In this document: one piece after another, positions 13,410 to 24,815 of the stretch | Layout: each line of letters starts with the position of its first letter | How positions within the stretch are numbered: position 1 is the first letter of the stretch | Source of the DNA: Geobacter sp. AOG1 | GTDB lineage: Bacteria > Desulfobacterota > Desulfuromonadia > Geobacterales > Geobacteraceae | Assembly (NCBI RefSeq): GCF_019972315.1 | Contig: NZ_BLIZ01000001.1 | Location: 818,513 to 882,512 of the forward strand | DNA: 64,000 nucleotides | Direction of reading: 5' to 3' | Notes under the pieces: model-generated | The model's input: the letters and a program-made list of their open reading frames with translations, nothing else | What the model was told of the DNA's origin: nothing | The model's database searches: none | Position numbers and translations under genes: made by a program

Positions 13410-15518
13410 TCAGGCCAGTTCCCATGCCGTCAGTTCGGCAATGGTGTGCTGGAACTTATGCCGGGTCTCCCGGATCACGAAGGGGATGTCCCGCGGCGCG
13501 CCCAGCATCCGGAAGCGGGTCGCCAGCGCCTCCTTCAGCCCATCCAGGGTCCAGACCGGCTCGCCGGCATCGCGGTAGCCACCGAGCCACTCCTCTTTTT
13601 TCGTGAACTCCTCCAGCCAGGTATAGGGGGAAGTAATCACCAGCAGGCCGCCGGGATTCATCCGCTCGTGGATGGTGGAGAGGAATCGGCGCGGCGCGTA
13701 GAGCCGGTCGATGAGGTTGGCGGCCAGCACCAGGTCGTAGCCGGTGAACTTGTCCGGCAGGTTGCAGGCGTCCGCCTGGAAGAACGCCACCCGGTCCCGG
13801 ACCTCCGCCAGCCCCAGTTCGGCGAGACCGATTTCGTGGAAGGAGACGATCTCCCCCTCCTCGGGCAGGGCAAAGCGCAGGTACCCTTCCTCCTGCATCC
13901 GGGCTGCCAGGCGGAAGAAGCGGGTGGAGAAGTCGAGCCCGGTGACCCGTTCGAAGCCCCCCTTCGCCAGTTCGAAGGAAGCCCGCCCCACGGCACACCC
14001 CAGGTCGAGGGCGGCACCCCTGGTGCGCCCCTCCATCAACTCCAGGCATATCCGGGCGCAGGTCGCCGGAAAATTCGCCACGTCGAAGTGGGCCGGCCCG
14101 TAGTGGGCGTCGCAGTACTGGGCCGCCAGGGTGTCGGTCTCGTACTGGTCCTGGTGGACCACCACCGGGGCAACGCTCTCCACGTAACGGAAACCGGCAT
14201 GCTGGAAGAAATGGCGCCGGAAGGCATAGCGGGAATCGCGGGTCGCCTCGTTGCCGGTGGATATCCAGGAGCCCCCCTTGATCAGGTTGTGGCGGGTGTC
14301 GAAGGTGGGGGTGGAAAAGTCGTCGTACCAGGGGTGGATCTGGAAGCCGTGGAAGGGGTAGATGGGGGTCTCGGTCCACTGCCAGACATTCCCGAGCACG
14401 TCGTAGAACGGGCCGAAGGGGAAACGGTCCACCGGGCAGGAGGAGCTCCACTGCTCCAGGTTGATGTTGCCGGGGGCCTTGTCCCAGTATGGCTGGTCGG
14501 GAATGGCGCAGACGTCCCGCAGCCGGTTCCACTCGTCCTCGGTAGGGAGGCGGACCGGCCGGCCGCTCCGCTCGGCCTTCCAGTTGCAGAAGGCCTTCGC
14601 CTCGAGGCAGTTCACCTCCACCGGCCAGTTCCAGGGGAGGGGGATGACCGAGGCCATGGTGCGCAGCTTCCAGCCGGCACCGTCCCTGATCCAGAAGAGC
14701 GGATGCTCTGCCTGCTTGAACTGGCACCAGTTCCATCCCTCCTCGGTCCACCACCGCTGTTCGCGGTAGCCGCCAGCCTCGACGAACGCCAGGAACTCAC
14801 GGTTGGAAACCAGGTAGCGGGAGGCCCTGAACGCCTCCACCTCCGCCTCATGCCGTCCGTACTCGTTGTCCCAGCCGTAGAGCGGATGGTCCTTCGGCTT
14901 CCCCAGGATTACTTTGCCCCCCGCCACCGGCAGCAGTTCATTGGCCGGCGGCTCTCCCGACTCGCGGCAGATCTCCCAGAAGGGGAGCTGCACCACCTGA
15001 TCGAGGGGAAGCTGGCGGATCAGCACCGACGAGGTCTCCAGGTGGATGCGCTCGTGTTCGATTCCCATCATAATCCCCCAGAAGGGGTCCTCCCAGGTTA
15101 TGGGGAGCGTAAGGGGGAGACGGCGGATCAGGCCGTCCACCAGTTCCCGGACCTTGTCCCGGTACTCCTTCACCTCCTGGCGGGTCGGCCAGTCGTAGTG
15201 GGTGGCGTCCAGGTCGTCCCAGGACATCTCGTCCACCCCCACGGCGAACATGGATTCGAAGCGCGGGTTGATCCGGGTGTCGATCACCCGGGCAATGGTC
15301 AGCTTGTTGATGAAGAAGGTGGCGGTGTGGCCAAAGTAGAAGATGAGGGGATGCCGGAGCCGGTCGGCCCGCAGGTAGAAGGTGTCGTCGTACTTCAGGG
15401 TTTCGTAGAGCTTCTCGTCGATGTCGAACGTCCGGTGGAAATACTCCAGTATCTCCATCCGTTTCCGCTCCGGGTCCCCCTCGTTCAGGACGATGGTACG
15501 GGTTTTCTTCAGGTCCAT
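13410..15518 (-). CDS. ovoA: OvoA: 5-histidylcysteine sulfoxide synthase with fused methyltransferase
   Basis: The product is 702 residues with the three-part OvoA layout: an N-terminal DinB-like domain (1-190), an FGE-sulfatase-like domain (about 195-460) and a C-terminal SAM methyltransferase (about 480-702, motif ALDLGCAVGRAS near 501). The iron ligands of the family are visible as GIEHERIHLE (H155, H159 in the HxxxHxE motif) and probably H64 in YFGHT. OvoA joins cysteine to histidine with O2, and its methyltransferase part N-methylates the mercaptohistidine, leading to ovothiol A; this is family knowledge. The enzyme is cytoplasmic. It requires oxygen, which is notable if the host is an anaerobe. 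No lyase-type OvoB gene is beside it. Confidence 0.92.
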   Translation of the reverse strand: MDLKKTRTIVLNEGDPERKRMEILEYFHRTFDIDEKLYETLKYDDTFYLRADRLRHPLIFYFGHTATFFINKLTIARVIDTRINPRFESMFAVGVDEMSWDDLDATHYDWPTRQEVKEYRDKVRELVDGLIRRLPLTLPITWEDPFWGIMMGIEHERIHLETSSVLIRQLPLDQVVQLPFWEICRESGEPPANELLPVAGGKVILGKPKDHPLYGWDNEYGRHEAEVEAFRASRYLVSNREFLAFVEAGGYREQRWWTEEGWNWCQFKQAEHPLFWIRDGAGWKLRTMASVIPLPWNWPVEVNCLEAKAFCNWKAERSGRPVRLPTEDEWNRLRDVCAIPDQPYWDKAPGNINLEQWSSSCPVDRFPFGPFYDVLGNVWQWTETPIYPFHGFQIHPWYDDFSTPTFDTRHNLIKGGSWISTGNEATRDSRYAFRRHFFQHAGFRYVESVAPVVVHQDQYETDTLAAQYCDAHYGPAHFDVANFPATCARICLELMEGRTRGAALDLGCAVGRASFELAKGGFERVTGLDFSTRFFRLAARMQEEGYLRFALPEEGEIVSFHEIGLAELGLAEVRDRVAFFQADACNLPDKFTGYDLVLAANLIDRLYAPRRFLSTIHERMNPGGLLVITSPYTWLEEFTKKEEWLGGYRDAGEPVWTLDGLKEALATRFRMLGAPRDIPFVIRETRHKFQHTIAELTAWELA

Positions 15519-19127: not shown

Positions 19128-20918
19128 GTGTCACCGCTCCCCTATCATTACCCTGCAGCTGCGTGCCATCTGCGTCGCGGCATGACGGCGCTTTTCCTTC
19201 TCCTGGCGCTCCTGCTCGTCCCCTTCCATGCCGGTTCCGTTGTCGCCGAGACGCTTCTGTCCCATCCGAAAAATGTGATCGTCGTGGGGGGAGACCGGGA
19301 TTACCCCCCCTACGAGTTCATCGACCGGGACGGTAATCCGTCCGGCTACAACGTGGAGCTCACCAGGGCCATCGCCAACGTGATGGGGATGAAGGTCGAA
19401 TTCCGCCTCGGCGGCTGGTCGGAGATGCGCACCGCCCTGCAGAACGGCACGGTCGACGTGCTTCAGGGTATCTCCTATTCGGATGAACGGGTGAATGAAG
19501 TCGACTTTTCCCTCCCCCACACCATCGTCAACCATGCGGTCTTCGCCCGCCGCGATTCCCCCATGATCAACTCCCTCAAGGAGGCCGAGGGGAAGAGCGT
19601 GGCCGTCCACCGAGGGGGGATCATGCACGATCTCCTGGCCAGGAAGGGCTTCGCCGGGAACCTGGTCCTGACCGACACCCCCGCCGACGCCCTGCGCCTC
19701 CTTGCCGCGGGGAAATGCGACTACGCCATCGTGGCCATCGTACCGGGGATGTACCTCATCCGTGAACTGAAGCTGACCAACCTGCTGCCGGTGGTGCGCA
19801 ACGTGGCCACCTACCGTTACTGCTACGCGGTGAAGAAGGGGAACAAGGAGCTCCTCTCCCGCTTCGACGAGGGGCTGGCCATCCTCAAGCAGACCGGGCA
19901 GCACCAGGCGATCTACGAAAAGTGGCTGGGGGTGCTGGAACCGGAGCGGGTAGACTGGCGGACCATCGTCAAGTACGGGGCGGTGGTGGTAATTCCCCTG
20001 GTCCTGCTGCTCGGTGGTTTTGCCCTCTGGTCCCGGACCCTGCACCGGCAGGTGGCCCTGCGCACCGCCGACCTGACGCGGGAGATCGCCGAGCGCCGGC
20101 ATGCCGAGGAGGAACTGCTCCTCAATCAGCAGCAGCTGGTCCAGGCCGACAAGATGGCGGCCCTGGGGGTCCTGGTCTCCGGCGTGGCCCACGAGATCAA
20201 TAACCCCACCGGCCTCATCCTGCTGGATATCCCGATCCTGAAGCGGGCCCACCGGGACACGGCCCCCATCCTGGAAGAGCACTTCCGACAAGGGGGGGAT
20301 TTCCCCATCGGCGGGGTCCCCTACACGGAGATGCGGGACGAGATTCCACGGATACACGACGAAATGCTGGAGGGAGCCCACAGGATCAAGCGTATCGTCA
20401 ACGACCTGAAGGACTTTGCCCGGCGGGACGACACGGGGGACAAGGGGACCATGGACTTCACCGCCGTCGTGAAGACGGCGATACGCCTGGTCGATCCGAC
20501 CATCCGCAAGGCGACGAACAGCTTCACCGCCGCCTGCGAGGAAGGACTTCCCCAGGTCTGGGGGAACGCCCAGCGGATCGAGCAGGTAGTGGTCAACCTG
20601 CTCCTCAACGCCTGCCAGGCCCTTCCCGACACGGCCCGGAAGATTGCACTCGACATTCGCCACGACCGGGAGCAGGGGCAGGTCGTCCTGCAGGTGCGTG
20701 ATGAAGGGGTCGGCATCGATCCCGAGCACCTCTCCCGGCTGACCGACCCCTTTTTCACCACGAAACGGGACAGCGGCGGAACCGGTCTCGGCCTGTCGGT
20801 TTCCGCCGGCATCGTCAAGGAGCATGGCGGAACCCTCACCTTCGAATCGGAAGTCGGCAAGGGGACCACCGTGACGCTGATGCTGCCCATACCCAGGAAT
20901 GAGCAATCCGACACCTGA
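19128..20918 (+). CDS. histidine kinase with periplasmic solute-binding (SBP_bac_3) sensor domain
   Basis: The product is 596 residues, read from a GTG at 19128 with CAGGAG upstream. Order: signal/membrane segment (about 20-38), a type 3 solute-binding domain (about 48-275; VVGGDRDYPPYEFIDRDGNPSGYNVEL, GWSEMRTALQNGTVDVLQGISYSDER), one membrane segment (about 285-305), a coiled coil, and a kinase core with H355 in GVAHEINNP, then N, G1 (DEGVGIDP), F and G2 (GGTGLGLSVSAGIV) boxes. The HExNNP-type core is that of the NtrB/DctB-like kinases that pair with sigma-54 regulators. It is followed 36 bases later by such a regulator, and then by dcuB, so a C4-dicarboxylate or related signal is a reasonable inference. 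Confidence 0.9.
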   Translation: MSPLPYHYPAAACHLRRGMTALFLLLALLLVPFHAGSVVAETLLSHPKNVIVVGGDRDYPPYEFIDRDGNPSGYNVELTRAIANVMGMKVEFRLGGWSEMRTALQNGTVDVLQGISYSDERVNEVDFSLPHTIVNHAVFARRDSPMINSLKEAEGKSVAVHRGGIMHDLLARKGFAGNLVLTDTPADALRLLAAGKCDYAIVAIVPGMYLIRELKLTNLLPVVRNVATYRYCYAVKKGNKELLSRFDEGLAILKQTGQHQAIYEKWLGVLEPERVDWRTIVKYGAVVVIPLVLLLGGFALWSRTLHRQVALRTADLTREIAERRHAEEELLLNQQQLVQADKMAALGVLVSGVAHEINNPTGLILLDIPILKRAHRDTAPILEEHFRQGGDFPIGGVPYTEMRDEIPRIHDEMLEGAHRIKRIVNDLKDFARRDDTGDKGTMDFTAVVKTAIRLVDPTIRKATNSFTAACEEGLPQVWGNAQRIEQVVVNLLLNACQALPDTARKIALDIRHDREQGQVVLQVRDEGVGIDPEHLSRLTDPFFTTKRDSGGTGLGLSVSAGIVKEHGGTLTFESEVGKGTTVTLMLPIPRNEQSDT

Positions 20919-20954: not shown

Positions 20955-22370
20955 ATGAGTGAATCCCCCTATCCCAGCTACAAGATTCTCCTTGTCGACG
21001 ACGAGCCGGCATGGCTCAAGTCGCTTTCGCTCACCCTCAGGAGCTGCGCGGGTCTGACCAACATCGTCACCTGCCAGGAGAGCCGGGAGGTCATGGGGAT
21101 CCTGGACCGGGGGGGAATCGGCCTGGTCCTGCTCGATCTCACCATGCCCCACCTGTCGGGAGAAGAGCTCCTCCGGCAGATCGGCGAGCGCCACCCCGAC
21201 ATCACCACCATCGTGGTCAGCGGTCTCAATCAGCTGGAGACCGCCGTTCGCTGCATGCGGCTCGGCGCTTACGACTACTTCATCAAGACCGACGAGGAAG
21301 ACCGGATTGTCGGGGGGGTACTCAGGGCTGTGCGGATGGTGGAGATGCAGCGCGAGTACCAGGAGATGTCCAGCCGGCTCGTTTCCGGGGAGCTCCGCCA
21401 CCCCGAGGCATTTTCCGCCATCGTCACCGGGGACCGGGGGATGCTGGCCGTCTTTTCCTACATCGAAGCGGTAGCCACAAGCCCCCAACCGCTCCTCATC
21501 ACCGGAGAGAGCGGCGTCGGCAAGGAGCTCATCGCCCATGCCGCCCATACCCTGAGCGGCTGCCGGGGGAAGCTCGTGGCGGTTAACGTGGCGGGGCTCG
21601 ACGACACCATCTTTGCCGATACCCTCTTCGGTCACGTGCGGGGGGCCTACACAGGAGCGGAGACGGTCCGCCGCGGGATGGTGGAGGAGGCAGCCGACGG
21701 CACCCTGTTCCTCGACGAGATCGGCGACCTGAGCATCCCCTCCCAGGTAAAGCTCCTCCGCCTGCTCCAGGAGGGGGAGTATTTCCCCCTCGGTACGGAC
21801 CAGCCCAAACGGATCAAGGCGCGGGTCATCGTCGCCACCCACCGGAACCTGGCCGCCAAAGAGGCGGCGGGGGAGTTCCGCCGGGACCTCTACTACCGGC
21901 TCCGCACCCACAAGGTTCATGTTCCGCCTCTCCGGGAACGGAAGGGCGATATCCCGCTCCTCCTCGACCATTTCCTCGCCGAGGCGGCCCGCACCCTCGG
22001 GAAGAAGAAACCGACCCCCCCCAAGGGGCTGGCCCAGTTCCTCGCCACCTACGGCTTTCCCGGCAACGTGCGCGAACTGAAGGCCATGGTCTACGACGCC
22101 GTCAGCATCCATCGCGACGGTCTGCTCTCCATGGACTCCTTCATCGCCGCCGTGGAGCAGGGACGGACGGAGGCGGGACCGGCCGCTGTAGCGCCATCCC
22201 GGCAGAATCCCTTCGCCGGTTTCATCGAACTCCCCACCTTCAGTGAAGCGGCCGGTTTCCTGGTGATGGAAGCCATGGACCGGGCCAGCGGCAACCAGAC
22301 CCTGGCGGCGCGACTCCTCGGCATATCCCAGCCGGCGCTCAACAAGCGGCTCAAGATAATGCGGAGTTGA
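20955..22370 (+). CDS. sigma-54-dependent response regulator (NtrC/DctD type)
   Basis: The product is 471 residues: receiver domain (1-125, phospho-acceptor D61 in LVLLDLTMP, acidic pair D15/D16), AAA+ domain (about 140-380; Walker A GESGVGKE near 185, GAYTGA near 231 for sigma-54 contact, Walker B TLFLDEIGD, arginine finger region YYRLRTHKVHVPPLRER) and a Fis-type helix-turn-helix at the end (QTLAARLLGISQPALNKRL). The GAFTGA motif has Tyr for Phe, an allowed variant. It follows the histidine kinase by 36 bases with GAGAGG ahead of the ATG. Two palindromes and a -24/-12 promoter lie directly downstream before dcuB, its likely target. Confidence 0.92.
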   Translation: MSESPYPSYKILLVDDEPAWLKSLSLTLRSCAGLTNIVTCQESREVMGILDRGGIGLVLLDLTMPHLSGEELLRQIGERHPDITTIVVSGLNQLETAVRCMRLGAYDYFIKTDEEDRIVGGVLRAVRMVEMQREYQEMSSRLVSGELRHPEAFSAIVTGDRGMLAVFSYIEAVATSPQPLLITGESGVGKELIAHAAHTLSGCRGKLVAVNVAGLDDTIFADTLFGHVRGAYTGAETVRRGMVEEAADGTLFLDEIGDLSIPSQVKLLRLLQEGEYFPLGTDQPKRIKARVIVATHRNLAAKEAAGEFRRDLYYRLRTHKVHVPPLRERKGDIPLLLDHFLAEAARTLGKKKPTPPKGLAQFLATYGFPGNVRELKAMVYDAVSIHRDGLLSMDSFIAAVEQGRTEAGPAAVAPSRQNPFAGFIELPTFSEAAGFLVMEAMDRASGNQTLAARLLGISQPALNKRLKIMRS

Positions 22371-22374
22371 CCAC

Positions 22375-22393
22375 GTATAACCCGAGGTTATAC
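22375..22393 (+). promoter_or_regulatory. palindromic activator site 1 upstream of dcuB
   Basis: GTATAACC-CGA-GGTTATAC is a perfect 19-base palindrome starting four bases after the regulator stop codon. It shares its half-site with the second palindrome at 22463. The centre is about 200 bases before the predicted transcription start, an allowed distance for an enhancer-binding regulator. Confidence 0.75.
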
Positions 22394-22462
22394 CCATAAC
22401 CGTTTGTTTAAACTGGCTTAACATACTTACATCATTACACTTTCAAATATCGCTCCCCCGCT

Positions 22463-22483
22463 GGTATAACCTGCGGTTATGCC
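22463..22483 (+). promoter_or_regulatory. palindromic activator site 2 upstream of dcuB
   Basis: GGTATAACC-TGC-GGTTATGCC is a 21-base palindrome with one mismatch pair and the same GTATAACC half-site as site 1, centred 89 bases from it and about 111 bases before the predicted transcription start. The spacing and symmetry fit a DctD/NtrC-type upstream activator sequence. Confidence 0.75.
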
Positions 22484-22556
22484 GGTTCCCCCGCCACAAA
22501 ACCTGCCCACGACCAAATAGCGCAGTACTTTCAGCATGTTGCAGATAAATTCCTTT

Positions 22557-22573
22557 CTGGCATTGTCCATGCT
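22557..22573 (+). promoter_or_regulatory. sigma-54 (-24/-12) promoter of dcuB
   Basis: CTGGCATTGTCCATGCT contains the invariant GG (22559-22560) and GC (22571-22572) at the required 12-base offset, within good matches to TGGCA and TGC. Transcription should begin near 22584, about 59 bases before the dcuB ATG. Confidence 0.8.
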
Positions 22574-22642
22574 CTTACCTCTGCAGAAAGAGACGGGCGA
22601 CCAACTGACCCGTCCAGCTCATGGTAAGAATGGAGGTTCGTC

Positions 22643-23971
22643 ATGGCAATGTTCTGGATCCAATTTGTGCTCGTCCTCGGTGCCATCCTCATCGGTATCA
22701 GACGGGGCGGAGTGGCCCTCGGTCTCATCGGCGGGCTCGGTGTAGCGCTGCTCACGCTCGGGTTCCGCAGCTCTCCTGCCGAGCCGCCGGTCGGCGTCAT
22801 GCTCATCATCCTGGCGGTGGTTACCGCTGCGGCCACGCTACAGGTTGCCGGCGGCCTCGACTACCTGGTGCAGCTCACCGAAAAGCTACTCCGCGCCCAT
22901 CCCAAGTACGTGACCATCCTCGCCCCCTTGAGCACTTTCTTTCTCACGGTCTGCGTCGGTACCGGCCACGCGGTGTATGCGCTGCTGCCGGTCATTGCCG
23001 ATGTTGCCATCAAGACCGGTACCCGGCCCGAACGGCCCATGGCGATCGCCAGCGTCGCATCCCAGATGGGGATCACCGCCAGCCCGGTAGCCGCGGCCGT
23101 CACCTTCTTTCTCGGTTTTGCCGCCAAGACCGGTCATCCCGTCACCCTCATCGATATCATCTCCGTAACCATGCCGGCAGGGATTGTCGGTGTCGTGGCT
23201 GCCTCGGCCTGGAGCTTCAACCGCGGCAAGGATCTGGACAAGGACCCCGAGTACCAGGGACGTCTGCAGGACCCGGAGTTCCGCAAATCGATCAACTCCA
23301 ACGTCACCACCCTCGACAAAAAAATCACCACCACAGCCAAGGTGTCGGTGGCACTTTTCTTCACCGGCGTGGCCACCATCATCCTCTTCGCCGTCTGGCC
23401 GGACCTGCTCCCCCTTGGCGCGGACAAGAAGCCAGTGCCGATGACCACGGTCGTCCAGTTCGTCATGCTCGCCTATGGCGCCTTCATCATGTTCGCTGGC
23501 AATGTCAAAGCCAAGGAGATCGCCAATTCGAGCGTCTTCATCGCCGGCATGACCGCTGTTGTCTCCATCTTCGGCATTGCCTGGATGAGCGACACCTTCA
23601 TCACCGCCAACAAGAAGTTCCTGGTGGACAACATCGGGATCATGGTGAAGATGGCGCCCTGGACCTTTGCCATCGCCACGTTCTGCATCTCCGCCTTCGT
23701 CAAGAGCCAGGCCGCTACGCTGGCCATCACCCTGCCGCTCGGTCTGGCCCTGGGGCTGCCGGTGACGCTCCTACTCGGGCTCGTCCCCGCCAGCTATGCG
23801 TACTTCTTCTTCGCCTTCTATCCGAGCGATCTGGCGGCCATCAACTTCGACCGCACCGGCACCACCCGGATCGGCAAATACCTCCTCAACCACAGCTTCA
23901 TGATCCCCGGCCTCATCGGTGTCGGCGTCTCCACCGTGGTGGCGTACTTCATCGCGACCGTCCTGCTGTAA
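22643..23971 (+). CDS. dcuB: anaerobic C4-dicarboxylate transporter DcuB
   Basis: The product is 442 residues, close to E. coli DcuB (446). Diagnostic DcuB stretches are present: RRGGVALGLIGGLG, LLRAHPKYVTILAP, GTGHAVYALLPVI, TRPERPMAIASVASQMG, GKDLDKD and FYPSDLAAINFDRTGTTRIGK, which separate it from DcuA. It is an inner-membrane exchanger of fumarate, succinate, malate or aspartate, used in fumarate respiration. The ATG at 22643 has GGAGG seven bases upstream. A sigma-54 promoter and two activator palindromes precede it, and the kinase-regulator pair just upstream is its likely controller. A strong terminator follows. Confidence 0.93.
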   Translation: MAMFWIQFVLVLGAILIGIRRGGVALGLIGGLGVALLTLGFRSSPAEPPVGVMLIILAVVTAAATLQVAGGLDYLVQLTEKLLRAHPKYVTILAPLSTFFLTVCVGTGHAVYALLPVIADVAIKTGTRPERPMAIASVASQMGITASPVAAAVTFFLGFAAKTGHPVTLIDIISVTMPAGIVGVVAASAWSFNRGKDLDKDPEYQGRLQDPEFRKSINSNVTTLDKKITTTAKVSVALFFTGVATIILFAVWPDLLPLGADKKPVPMTTVVQFVMLAYGAFIMFAGNVKAKEIANSSVFIAGMTAVVSIFGIAWMSDTFITANKKFLVDNIGIMVKMAPWTFAIATFCISAFVKSQAATLAITLPLGLALGLPVTLLLGLVPASYAYFFFAFYPSDLAAINFDRTGTTRIGKYLLNHSFMIPGLIGVGVSTVVAYFIATVLL

Positions 23972-23998: not shown

Positions 23999-24035
23999 AA
24001 AAAGCTGGGGTGCCTAGGGCATCCCAGCTTTTTTT
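23999..24035 (+). terminator. rho-independent terminator of dcuB
   Basis: A 12-bp stem (AGCTGGGGTGCC with GGCATCCCAGCT, one G-T pair, loop TAG) is followed by a run of T residues, 28 bases after the dcuB stop codon. Confidence 0.9.
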
Positions 24036-24335: not shown

Positions 24336-24815
24336 ATGGATCGTCGGACATTTCTCAGGACAACGTTAGTCGGAGCCATGGCAGCAGGCGTCACGGGCAA
24401 CGCCGTAGCGGCAGAAATCTACTTTCCGACAAAGGTCGACAAGTCGCTCTTTGAAGGGATCAATCGCGTGAAAGATCCCACCAGCAAAACACCGCTGGAG
24501 AAAGGGCACGCGCCGGTCATCACGGCACCTGCATCCGTAAAGGCCGGCGAGCCGTTCACCGTCGAAGTCTCGGTGGGAGAAACCCTGCACCCCATGGGAC
24601 CGTCCCACTGGATCGAGTTCATCGAGCTCAGCATCGGCAATGAGCCTGCCGGAAGGGTGGATTTTCAGCCACGGGGCTTTCTCAAGCCCAGGGCAATCTT
24701 TACCGTCGTAATCCCCAAGGATACCGCTCCTGAGGGGAAACTGACCCTTTTGGCCAGGCAGCACTGCAACCTCCATGGAATGTGGGAGGGAAGCTTTACC
24801 ATTACCGTGACGTAA
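24336..24815 (+). CDS. Tat-exported class II superoxide reductase (neelaredoxin type)
   Basis: The product is 159 residues with AGGAGG-type spacing to the ATG. A twin-arginine signal (MDRRTFLRTT, cleavage after AVAA near 26) shows export folded, with its metal, to the periplasm. The neelaredoxin/desulfoferrodoxin active-site ligands are complete: H58 (EKGHAP), H85 and H91 (TLHPMGPSHWIEF), C144 and H147 (QHCNLHGMW), the His4Cys iron site. No N-terminal desulforedoxin domain is present, hence class II. It reduces superoxide to hydrogen peroxide. A periplasmic location is less common than the cytoplasmic form. It is flanked by a gap and a terminator, so it is monocistronic. Confidence 0.9.
   Translation: MDRRTFLRTTLVGAMAAGVTGNAVAAEIYFPTKVDKSLFEGINRVKDPTSKTPLEKGHAPVITAPASVKAGEPFTVEVSVGETLHPMGPSHWIEFIELSIGNEPAGRVDFQPRGFLKPRAIFTVVIPKDTAPEGKLTLLARQHCNLHGMWEGSFTITVT

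What the first reader, a model, noticed from the sequence alone, without database searches (positions are those of the whole stretch)
22375..22643. Readable circuit: sensor kinase and NtrC-type regulator, two matching palindromes, a -24/-12 promoter, then dcuB
The gap between the regulator and dcuB contains two copies of GTATAACC-N3-GGTTATAC and a promoter with exact GG/GC offset, at distances suited to an enhancer-binding protein. The kinase senses through a type 3 solute-binding domain rather than the PAS or Cache sensors of DctB/DcuS. This would be a dicarboxylate-exchange control system with an amino-acid-type binding sensor.
Basis: partly seen in the sequence, partly recalled or inferred. 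Interest (0 to 1): 0.65.

Follow-up and report, generated by a model that had tools for sequence, protein, structure and literature searches.

The report
Sigma-54 switch for fumarate/succinate exchanger gene
A membrane sensor and its DNA-binding partner sit next to the gene for the fumarate/succinate exchanger in a Geobacter-like bacterium, and the DNA between them carries conserved docking sites and a sigma-54 promoter; the promoter and gene order were already published for relatives, but the docking sites, their three-part layout and the way they change with the regulator appear to be new.

Summary
The palindrome at 22375-22393 is perfect; the one at 22464-22482 has one mismatch. A third, decayed copy abuts the first (22394-22412). 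A -24/-12 promoter follows, then dcuB. In this genome the exact core motif occurs only at dcuB. In some relatives the same array precedes an unlinked flavocytochrome c (fumarate-reductase-like) gene. Paralogous regulators beside dctA or a rotamase-bearing Dcu carrier have different palindromes that track changes in the recognition helix, which points to the adjacent regulator as the binder. Already known: sigma-54 dependence of dcuB (Leang 2009), the kinase/regulator/dcuB gene order (G. bemidjiensis 2010), and a crystal structure of a 68%-identical sensor domain (3H7M). The sensor has the amino-acid-binding fold but lacks the Asp that holds an amino group, so 'amino-acid-type sensor' is probably wrong about the ligand; a C4-dicarboxylate is likelier but unproven.

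The parts
19128..20918 (+). Sensor histidine kinase: signal/TM, periplasmic SBP_bac_3 domain (residues about 45-272), TM about 277-300, divergent HisKA with His355, HATPase
   Evidence: Pfam; motifs and hydropathy; AlphaFold model pLDDT 92; closest solved structure 3H7M
20955..22370 (+). NtrC-type response regulator: receiver (Asp61), AAA+ with Walker A 184, GAYTGA 230, Walker B 249, Fis-type HTH 446-467 (recognition helix SQPALNKRL)
   Evidence: Pfam; motif positions
22375..22393 (.). Operator site 1, perfect palindrome GTATAACC-CGA-GGTTATAC, centre about -200
   Evidence: conserved in relatives
22394..22412 (.). Operator site 2, 19 bp from site 1; one good half (CATAACC), decayed second half here; 1 mismatch in the closest relative L006 and intact in others (e.g. 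L016, L019, L021)
22464..22482 (.). Operator site 3, palindrome with one mismatch, GTATAACC-TGC-GGTTATGC, centre about -111
22558..22573 (+). -24/-12 sigma-54 promoter TGGCATTGTCCATGCT; predicted start about 22584
   Evidence: GGCA-N8-GC[TA] in 29 of 29 dcuB upstream regions; primer extension on the G. sulfurreducens orthologue
22632..22636 (+). Ribosome-binding site GGAGG
   Evidence: conserved in the alignment
22643..23971 (+). dcuB, anaerobic C4-dicarboxylate (fumarate/succinate) exchanger
   Evidence: Pfam PF03605 E 5.8e-140; NCBIfam NF009136 and TIGR00770 above cut-off
23999..24033 (+). Intrinsic-terminator-like hairpin after dcuB (16 pairs, then T run)

Best explanation
A dedicated sigma-54 two-component switch for dcuB. 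The kinase's periplasmic solute-binding-type domain responds to an outside signal, most likely a C4-dicarboxylate such as fumarate (inferred), and phosphorylates Asp61 of the adjacent regulator (inferred from motifs). The regulator, as dimers, occupies the tandem sites at about -200/-181 and the site at about -111, oligomerises, loops to the sigma-54 polymerase at -24/-12 and drives dcuB, providing the fumarate/succinate exchange needed for fumarate respiration. Shown here: anatomy, conservation, motif specificity and helix/operator covariation. Shown by others in G. sulfurreducens: sigma-54-dependent dcuB promoter. Inferred: binding by this regulator, phosphotransfer, ligand. The confidence given is for the regulator/operator/promoter part; for a C4-dicarboxylate as the directly bound signal it is about 0.5.
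For: Palindromes: 29 of 29 dcuB upstream regions have a core site at up to 1 mismatch (26 have two or more), against 0 of 5156 control windows and 0 of 2900 shuffles; all 29 have GGCA-N8-GC at -79 to -99 from the ATG. All 26 dcuB-bearing genomes of the family likewise; exact motif in 21 of 26 genomes with dcuB and 2 of 22 without. Sites stay with dcuB when the regulator gene is 0.5-4 kb away or 8, 12.6 and 24.5 kb away. They stay with the regulator when the transporter is a 46-48%-identical Dcu protein (L028, L029, L032). Recognition helix SQPAL goes with ATAACC half-sites, S[APG]PAL with TTAACC (10 of 10), SQPTL/SQSAL with GTATKCC (8 of 9, the ninth has none), with no cross-over. Same array before an unlinked flavocytochrome c gene in L175, L176, L178. 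Regulator has all parts of an NtrC-type activator. dcuB is sigma-54-dependent in G. sulfurreducens.
Against: No binding, phosphotransfer or ligand experiment exists here. The covariation groups are few and phylogenetically clustered, and the paralogue operators were read from the same data. Many SQPALSKRL regulators outside the dcuB/dctA clades have no recognised operator nearby. The homologous sensor 3H7M is reported as closed without ligand, so direct ligand sensing is not assured. dcuB also changes in a gsu1771 mutant, so other regulators act on it, directly or not.
Confidence: 0.85

Rival explanations
1. The circuit is as described, but the sensor does not bind a free dicarboxylate: the closed solute-binding domain is a structural switch whose state is set by another partner, for example the transporter itself (as DctA does for DcuS) or a periplasmic protein.
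For: 3H7M, 68% identical, is described as closed and unliganded and compared with BvgS; the AlphaFold model is closest to closed forms; published DcuS works as a DctA/DcuS complex (abstract).
Against: Pocket residues, including the carboxylate-binding Arg121, are invariant in 69 kinases, which suggests that a small acid is bound.
Confidence: 0.3
2. The sensor binds an amino acid (for example aspartate, which can feed fumarate) and the system couples dcuB to amino-acid supply.
For: The fold and nearest ABC-transporter relatives are amino-acid binders; DcuB-family carriers can carry aspartate (general knowledge).
Against: The Asp that holds the amino group (Asp161 of LAO/HisJ) is Ala203 here, Ala or Ser in all 69 family kinases, including those beside dctA.
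Confidence: 0.12
3. The palindromes are bound by a different regulator (another enhancer-binding protein or a repressor); the adjacent regulator acts elsewhere.
For: The genome encodes some 20 regulators of this class, and binding has not been tested; in several genomes the sites lie far from the regulator gene.
Against: Operator type changes in step with the adjacent regulator's recognition helix across paralogues, and sites persist with the regulator when the transporter is replaced. Site spacing and sigma-54 promoter fit an enhancer.
Confidence: 0.08

Closest known systems
dcuB (GSU2751) of Geobacter sulfurreducens, RpoN regulon (Leang et al. 2009, PMC2725144)
   Same: Same gene, sigma-54 -24/-12 promoter proven by primer extension there
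   Different: That text does not name the activator, and the passages read describe no operator; the operators, their three-site layout and the likely activator are added here
Kinase/regulator pairs before dcuB, dctA and a porin in G. bemidjiensis (PMC2996986)
   Same: [quoted passage not shown] parallel dicarboxylate pathways suggested
   Different: No DNA sites or promoters described in the section read; operator code and second target are added here
HK29 sensor domain, PDB 3H7M (G. sulfurreducens)
   Same: 68% identical over 224 residues, same solute-binding fold (Z 33.7)
   Different: 3H7M was not linked to dcuB in what could be read; whether it is the dcuB-linked kinase of that species could not be settled here
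DctB/DctD (C4-dicarboxylate, sigma-54)
   Same: Kinase plus NtrC-type regulator, upstream sites, sigma-54 promoter, C4-dicarboxylate carrier as target
   Different: DctB senses through PAS/Cache-like domains and the target is dctA (general knowledge); here the sensor is a type 3 solute-binding domain and the target dcuB
DcuS/DcuR of E. coli
   Same: Two-component control of dcuB
   Different: DcuS has a PAS/Cache sensor (general knowledge) and dcuB uses RpoD with FNR and CRP there; no sigma-54

Membership tests
NtrC-type (group I) sigma-54 enhancer-binding response regulators | Receiver domain with phospho-acceptor Asp | tested here: met
   PF00072 E 3.6e-20; Asp61 in LLDLTMP
NtrC-type (group I) sigma-54 enhancer-binding response regulators | AAA+ domain with Walker A/B and GAFTGA-type sigma-54 loop | tested here: met
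   PF00158 E 1.4e-52; GESGVGKE, GTLFLDE, GAYTGA (Phe to Tyr variant)
NtrC-type (group I) sigma-54 enhancer-binding response regulators | Fis-type HTH at C terminus | tested here: met
   PF02954 (HTH_8) 26.9 bits against cut-off 22
Sigma-54-dependent promoter | GG-N10-GC -24/-12 element, conserved | tested here: met
   29 of 29; 26 of 26 genomes
Sigma-54-dependent promoter | Transcription from this site depends on RpoN | not testable with these tools
   Published for the G. sulfurreducens orthologue; not measured in this organism
DctB/DctD and DcuS/DcuR | PAS/Cache periplasmic sensor | tested here: not met
   Sensor is SBP_bac_3, E 7.7e-36; model matches 3H7M
Type 3 solute-binding domain sensor kinases (HK29/BvgS type) | SBP_bac_3 domain in a membrane histidine kinase | tested here: met
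Amino-acid-binding type 3 solute-binding proteins | Arg for the alpha-carboxylate | tested here: met
   Arg121, invariant in 69 of 69
Amino-acid-binding type 3 solute-binding proteins | Asp for the alpha-amino group | tested here: not met
   Ala203 here; Ala 68, Ser 1 of 69
DcuB anaerobic C4-dicarboxylate carriers | Above curated Dcu model cut-offs | tested here: met
   NF009136 627 bits (cut-off 396), TIGR00770 464 bits (cut-off 331)

The most novel reading that the evidence does not exclude
In Geobacterales a duplicated set of sigma-54 two-component systems with solute-binding-fold sensors for C4-dicarboxylates has insulated itself by co-changing recognition helix, half-site and half-site spacing (ATAACC-N3 for dcuB and, in some genomes, a flavocytochrome c gene; ATAACC-N2 or TTAACC-N2 for dctA; GTATKCC-N4 for a rotamase-bearing Dcu carrier), all with a similar upstream-cluster-plus-one enhancer layout.
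Probability: 0.5. Interest if true: 0.5.

Novelty: new variant of a known kind. Interest (0 to 1): 0.45.

Why it matters
It names the likely activator and operators for dcuB, the fumarate/succinate exchanger that is essential for fumarate respiration in G. sulfurreducens (a usual laboratory electron acceptor), whose activator the 2009 study left unnamed. It also offers a compact natural series for studying how duplicated enhancer-binding regulators stay apart, and a solute-binding-fold sensor that has probably moved from amino acids to dicarboxylates.

Tried and rejected
IHF site between site 3 and the promoter: 7 of 29 regions at up to 1 mismatch against 2.3 expected, positions scattered; not convincing. 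Other targets in the own genome: no further exact core sites; 1- and 2-mismatch sites are no more frequent than the reversed control. Autoregulation: no second palindrome array in the window. Sigma-70 promoter for dcuB: none on the + strand in the gap by a simple scan. Extra exact palindromes in G034 (inside a coding frame) and G030:C1 (before a small gene, no second site or promoter seen) judged chance; the G020:C1 pair and G038 (before a paralogous kinase gene) left open. Identity of HK29 as the dcuB-linked kinase of G. sulfurreducens: 3H7M is about equally similar (66-71%) to dcuB- and dctA-linked kinases, so undecided. No paper was found naming the regulator of dcuB in Geobacter, but only open-licence papers were searchable. 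The species of the window was not established; it is called Geobacter-like because its nearest relatives in the search are Geobacter records.

Full report
What is there. Between the stop of an NtrC-type regulator gene (22370) and the start of dcuB (22643) lie a perfect palindrome (22375-22393), a decayed copy directly after it (22394-22412), a third copy with one mismatch (22464-22482) and a GG-N10-GC element (22558-22573). Two such palindromes are not expected by chance (0.03 per window), and the exact core motif is found nowhere else in the 3.68-Mb genome. The promoter element alone would not stand out in the window; it is believed because it is conserved and because the orthologous promoter was mapped.

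Genes. The kinase (19128-20918) carries a periplasmic SBP_bac_3 domain between two membrane segments, a divergent HisKA with His355 and a HATPase; the regulator (20955-22370) has receiver Asp61, AAA+ with GAYTGA and a Fis-type HTH; dcuB passes the curated Dcu cut-offs and is followed by a terminator-like hairpin at 23999-24033.

Conservation. Eighty loci with relatives of the regulator were fetched. In the 29 upstream regions of a close dcuB (window included), every one has a core site at up to one mismatch, 26 have two or more, and all have GGCA-N8-GC 79-99 bases before the ATG; 5156 control windows and 2900 shuffles gave none at that stringency. The layout is nearly constant: first site at about -263 to -285 from the ATG, often a second 18-19 bp on, a last one about 87-100 bp from the first, and the promoter about 92-97 bp after that. 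A second set of 48 family genomes (partly overlapping in species) agrees: all 26 with dcuB have sites and promoter; exact sites occur in 21 of 26 genomes with dcuB and 2 of 22 without; the same-genus genome G007 has neither dcuB nor exact sites.

Linkage breaks. In L012, L019, L020, L021, L024 and L048 other DNA lies between regulator and dcuB, and the sites stay with dcuB. In three more genomes the distance is 8.0, 12.6 and 24.5 kb, again with the sites at dcuB. Conversely L028, L029 and L032 have a transporter only 46-48% identical, yet the operator type persists beside the same kind of regulator. The motif is therefore a promoter element and not a relic of the regulator gene's 3' end.

A second target. 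In G016 and G017 (L175, L176) and in G023 (L178) the same palindromes and a TTGGCATCNCTCGTGCT promoter precede a haem-bearing flavocytochrome c of the fumarate-reductase kind (TIGR01813, 536 bits against cut-off 285, for L175), on contigs or regions without a close regulator gene. That ties the operator to fumarate-type metabolism independently of dcuB; the substrate of this flavocytochrome is not known.

Who binds. Paralogous regulators (60-74% identical) stand before dctA (SDF family) or a Dcu carrier with an inserted PPIC rotamase domain, many with palindromes and -24/-12 promoters of their own. Across all loci with a recognised operator, helix SQPAL goes with ATAACC half-sites (N3 before dcuB, N2 before dctA), S[APG]PAL with TTAACC-N2 (10 of 10), SQPTL/SQSAL with GTATKCC-N4 (8 of 8 with an operator); nothing crosses over. 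This is the best sequence evidence that the neighbouring regulator is the binder. It is limited by shared ancestry and by motif definitions taken from the same loci.

The sensor. An AlphaFold model (mean pLDDT 92) matches 3H7M best (Z 33.7) and then amino-acid-binding proteins, mostly ligand-bound forms. Of the two anchors of an amino-acid ligand, the carboxylate Arg (Arg121) is invariant in 69 kinases, but the amino-group Asp is Ala (68) or Ser (1). A carboxylate without amino group fits, and a C4-dicarboxylate fits the regulated genes, but 3H7M is reported closed and empty, so indirect sensing remains possible.

What was known. Leang et al. 2009 (PMC2725144) showed by microarray and primer extension that G. 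sulfurreducens dcuB is RpoN-dependent, called it the first such dcuB promoter, and spoke of an unnamed 'active EBP'. The G. bemidjiensis genome paper (PMC2996986) noted the kinase/regulator pairs before dcuB, dctA and a porin. New here, as far as the searchable papers show: the operators and their three-site layout, single-locus specificity in this genome, the flavocytochrome c target, the helix/operator covariation and the altered sensor pocket. All of it is computational.

Noticed in passing
L053:6952-8646 (also L054, L056-L059, L062, L065): Dcu-family C4-dicarboxylate carrier split by an inserted PPIC-type rotamase (peptidyl-prolyl isomerase) domain (Pfam on L053; the others show the same split match), beside a paralogous sensor kinase/regulator pair with its own palindrome type.
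   Followed up: partly
L175:4264-6018, L178:4106-6043: Flavocytochrome c (cytochrome c3-type haem domain plus fumarate-reductase flavoprotein domain) gene, unlinked to dcuB but with the same palindromes and -24/-12 promoter.
   Followed up: yes
window 13410-15518 (-): OvoA: 5-histidylcysteine sulfoxide synthase fused to the methyltransferase of ovothiol synthesis (TIGR04344 718 bits, TIGR04345 335 bits), in a Geobacter-like anaerobe.
   Followed up: partly
window 24336-24815 (+): Tat-signal-like protein with a desulfoferrodoxin iron-binding domain (below the TIGR00332 cut-off) downstream of dcuB, after a terminator-like hairpin.
   Followed up: no
L181:4037-4053: Palindrome of the same core type before a paralogous kinase gene in a genome without dcuB: possible autoregulation there.
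   Followed up: no
L177:3987-4086: Two exact core palindromes 83 bp apart away from dcuB in G020; no -24/-12 promoter was looked for in detail.
   Followed up: no
L066 and L174/L141: Regulator frame broken, and dcuB with a TGA stop or frame shift, in a Geotalea toluenoxydans draft (L066) and a family genome (G032); may be sequencing error.
   Followed up: no
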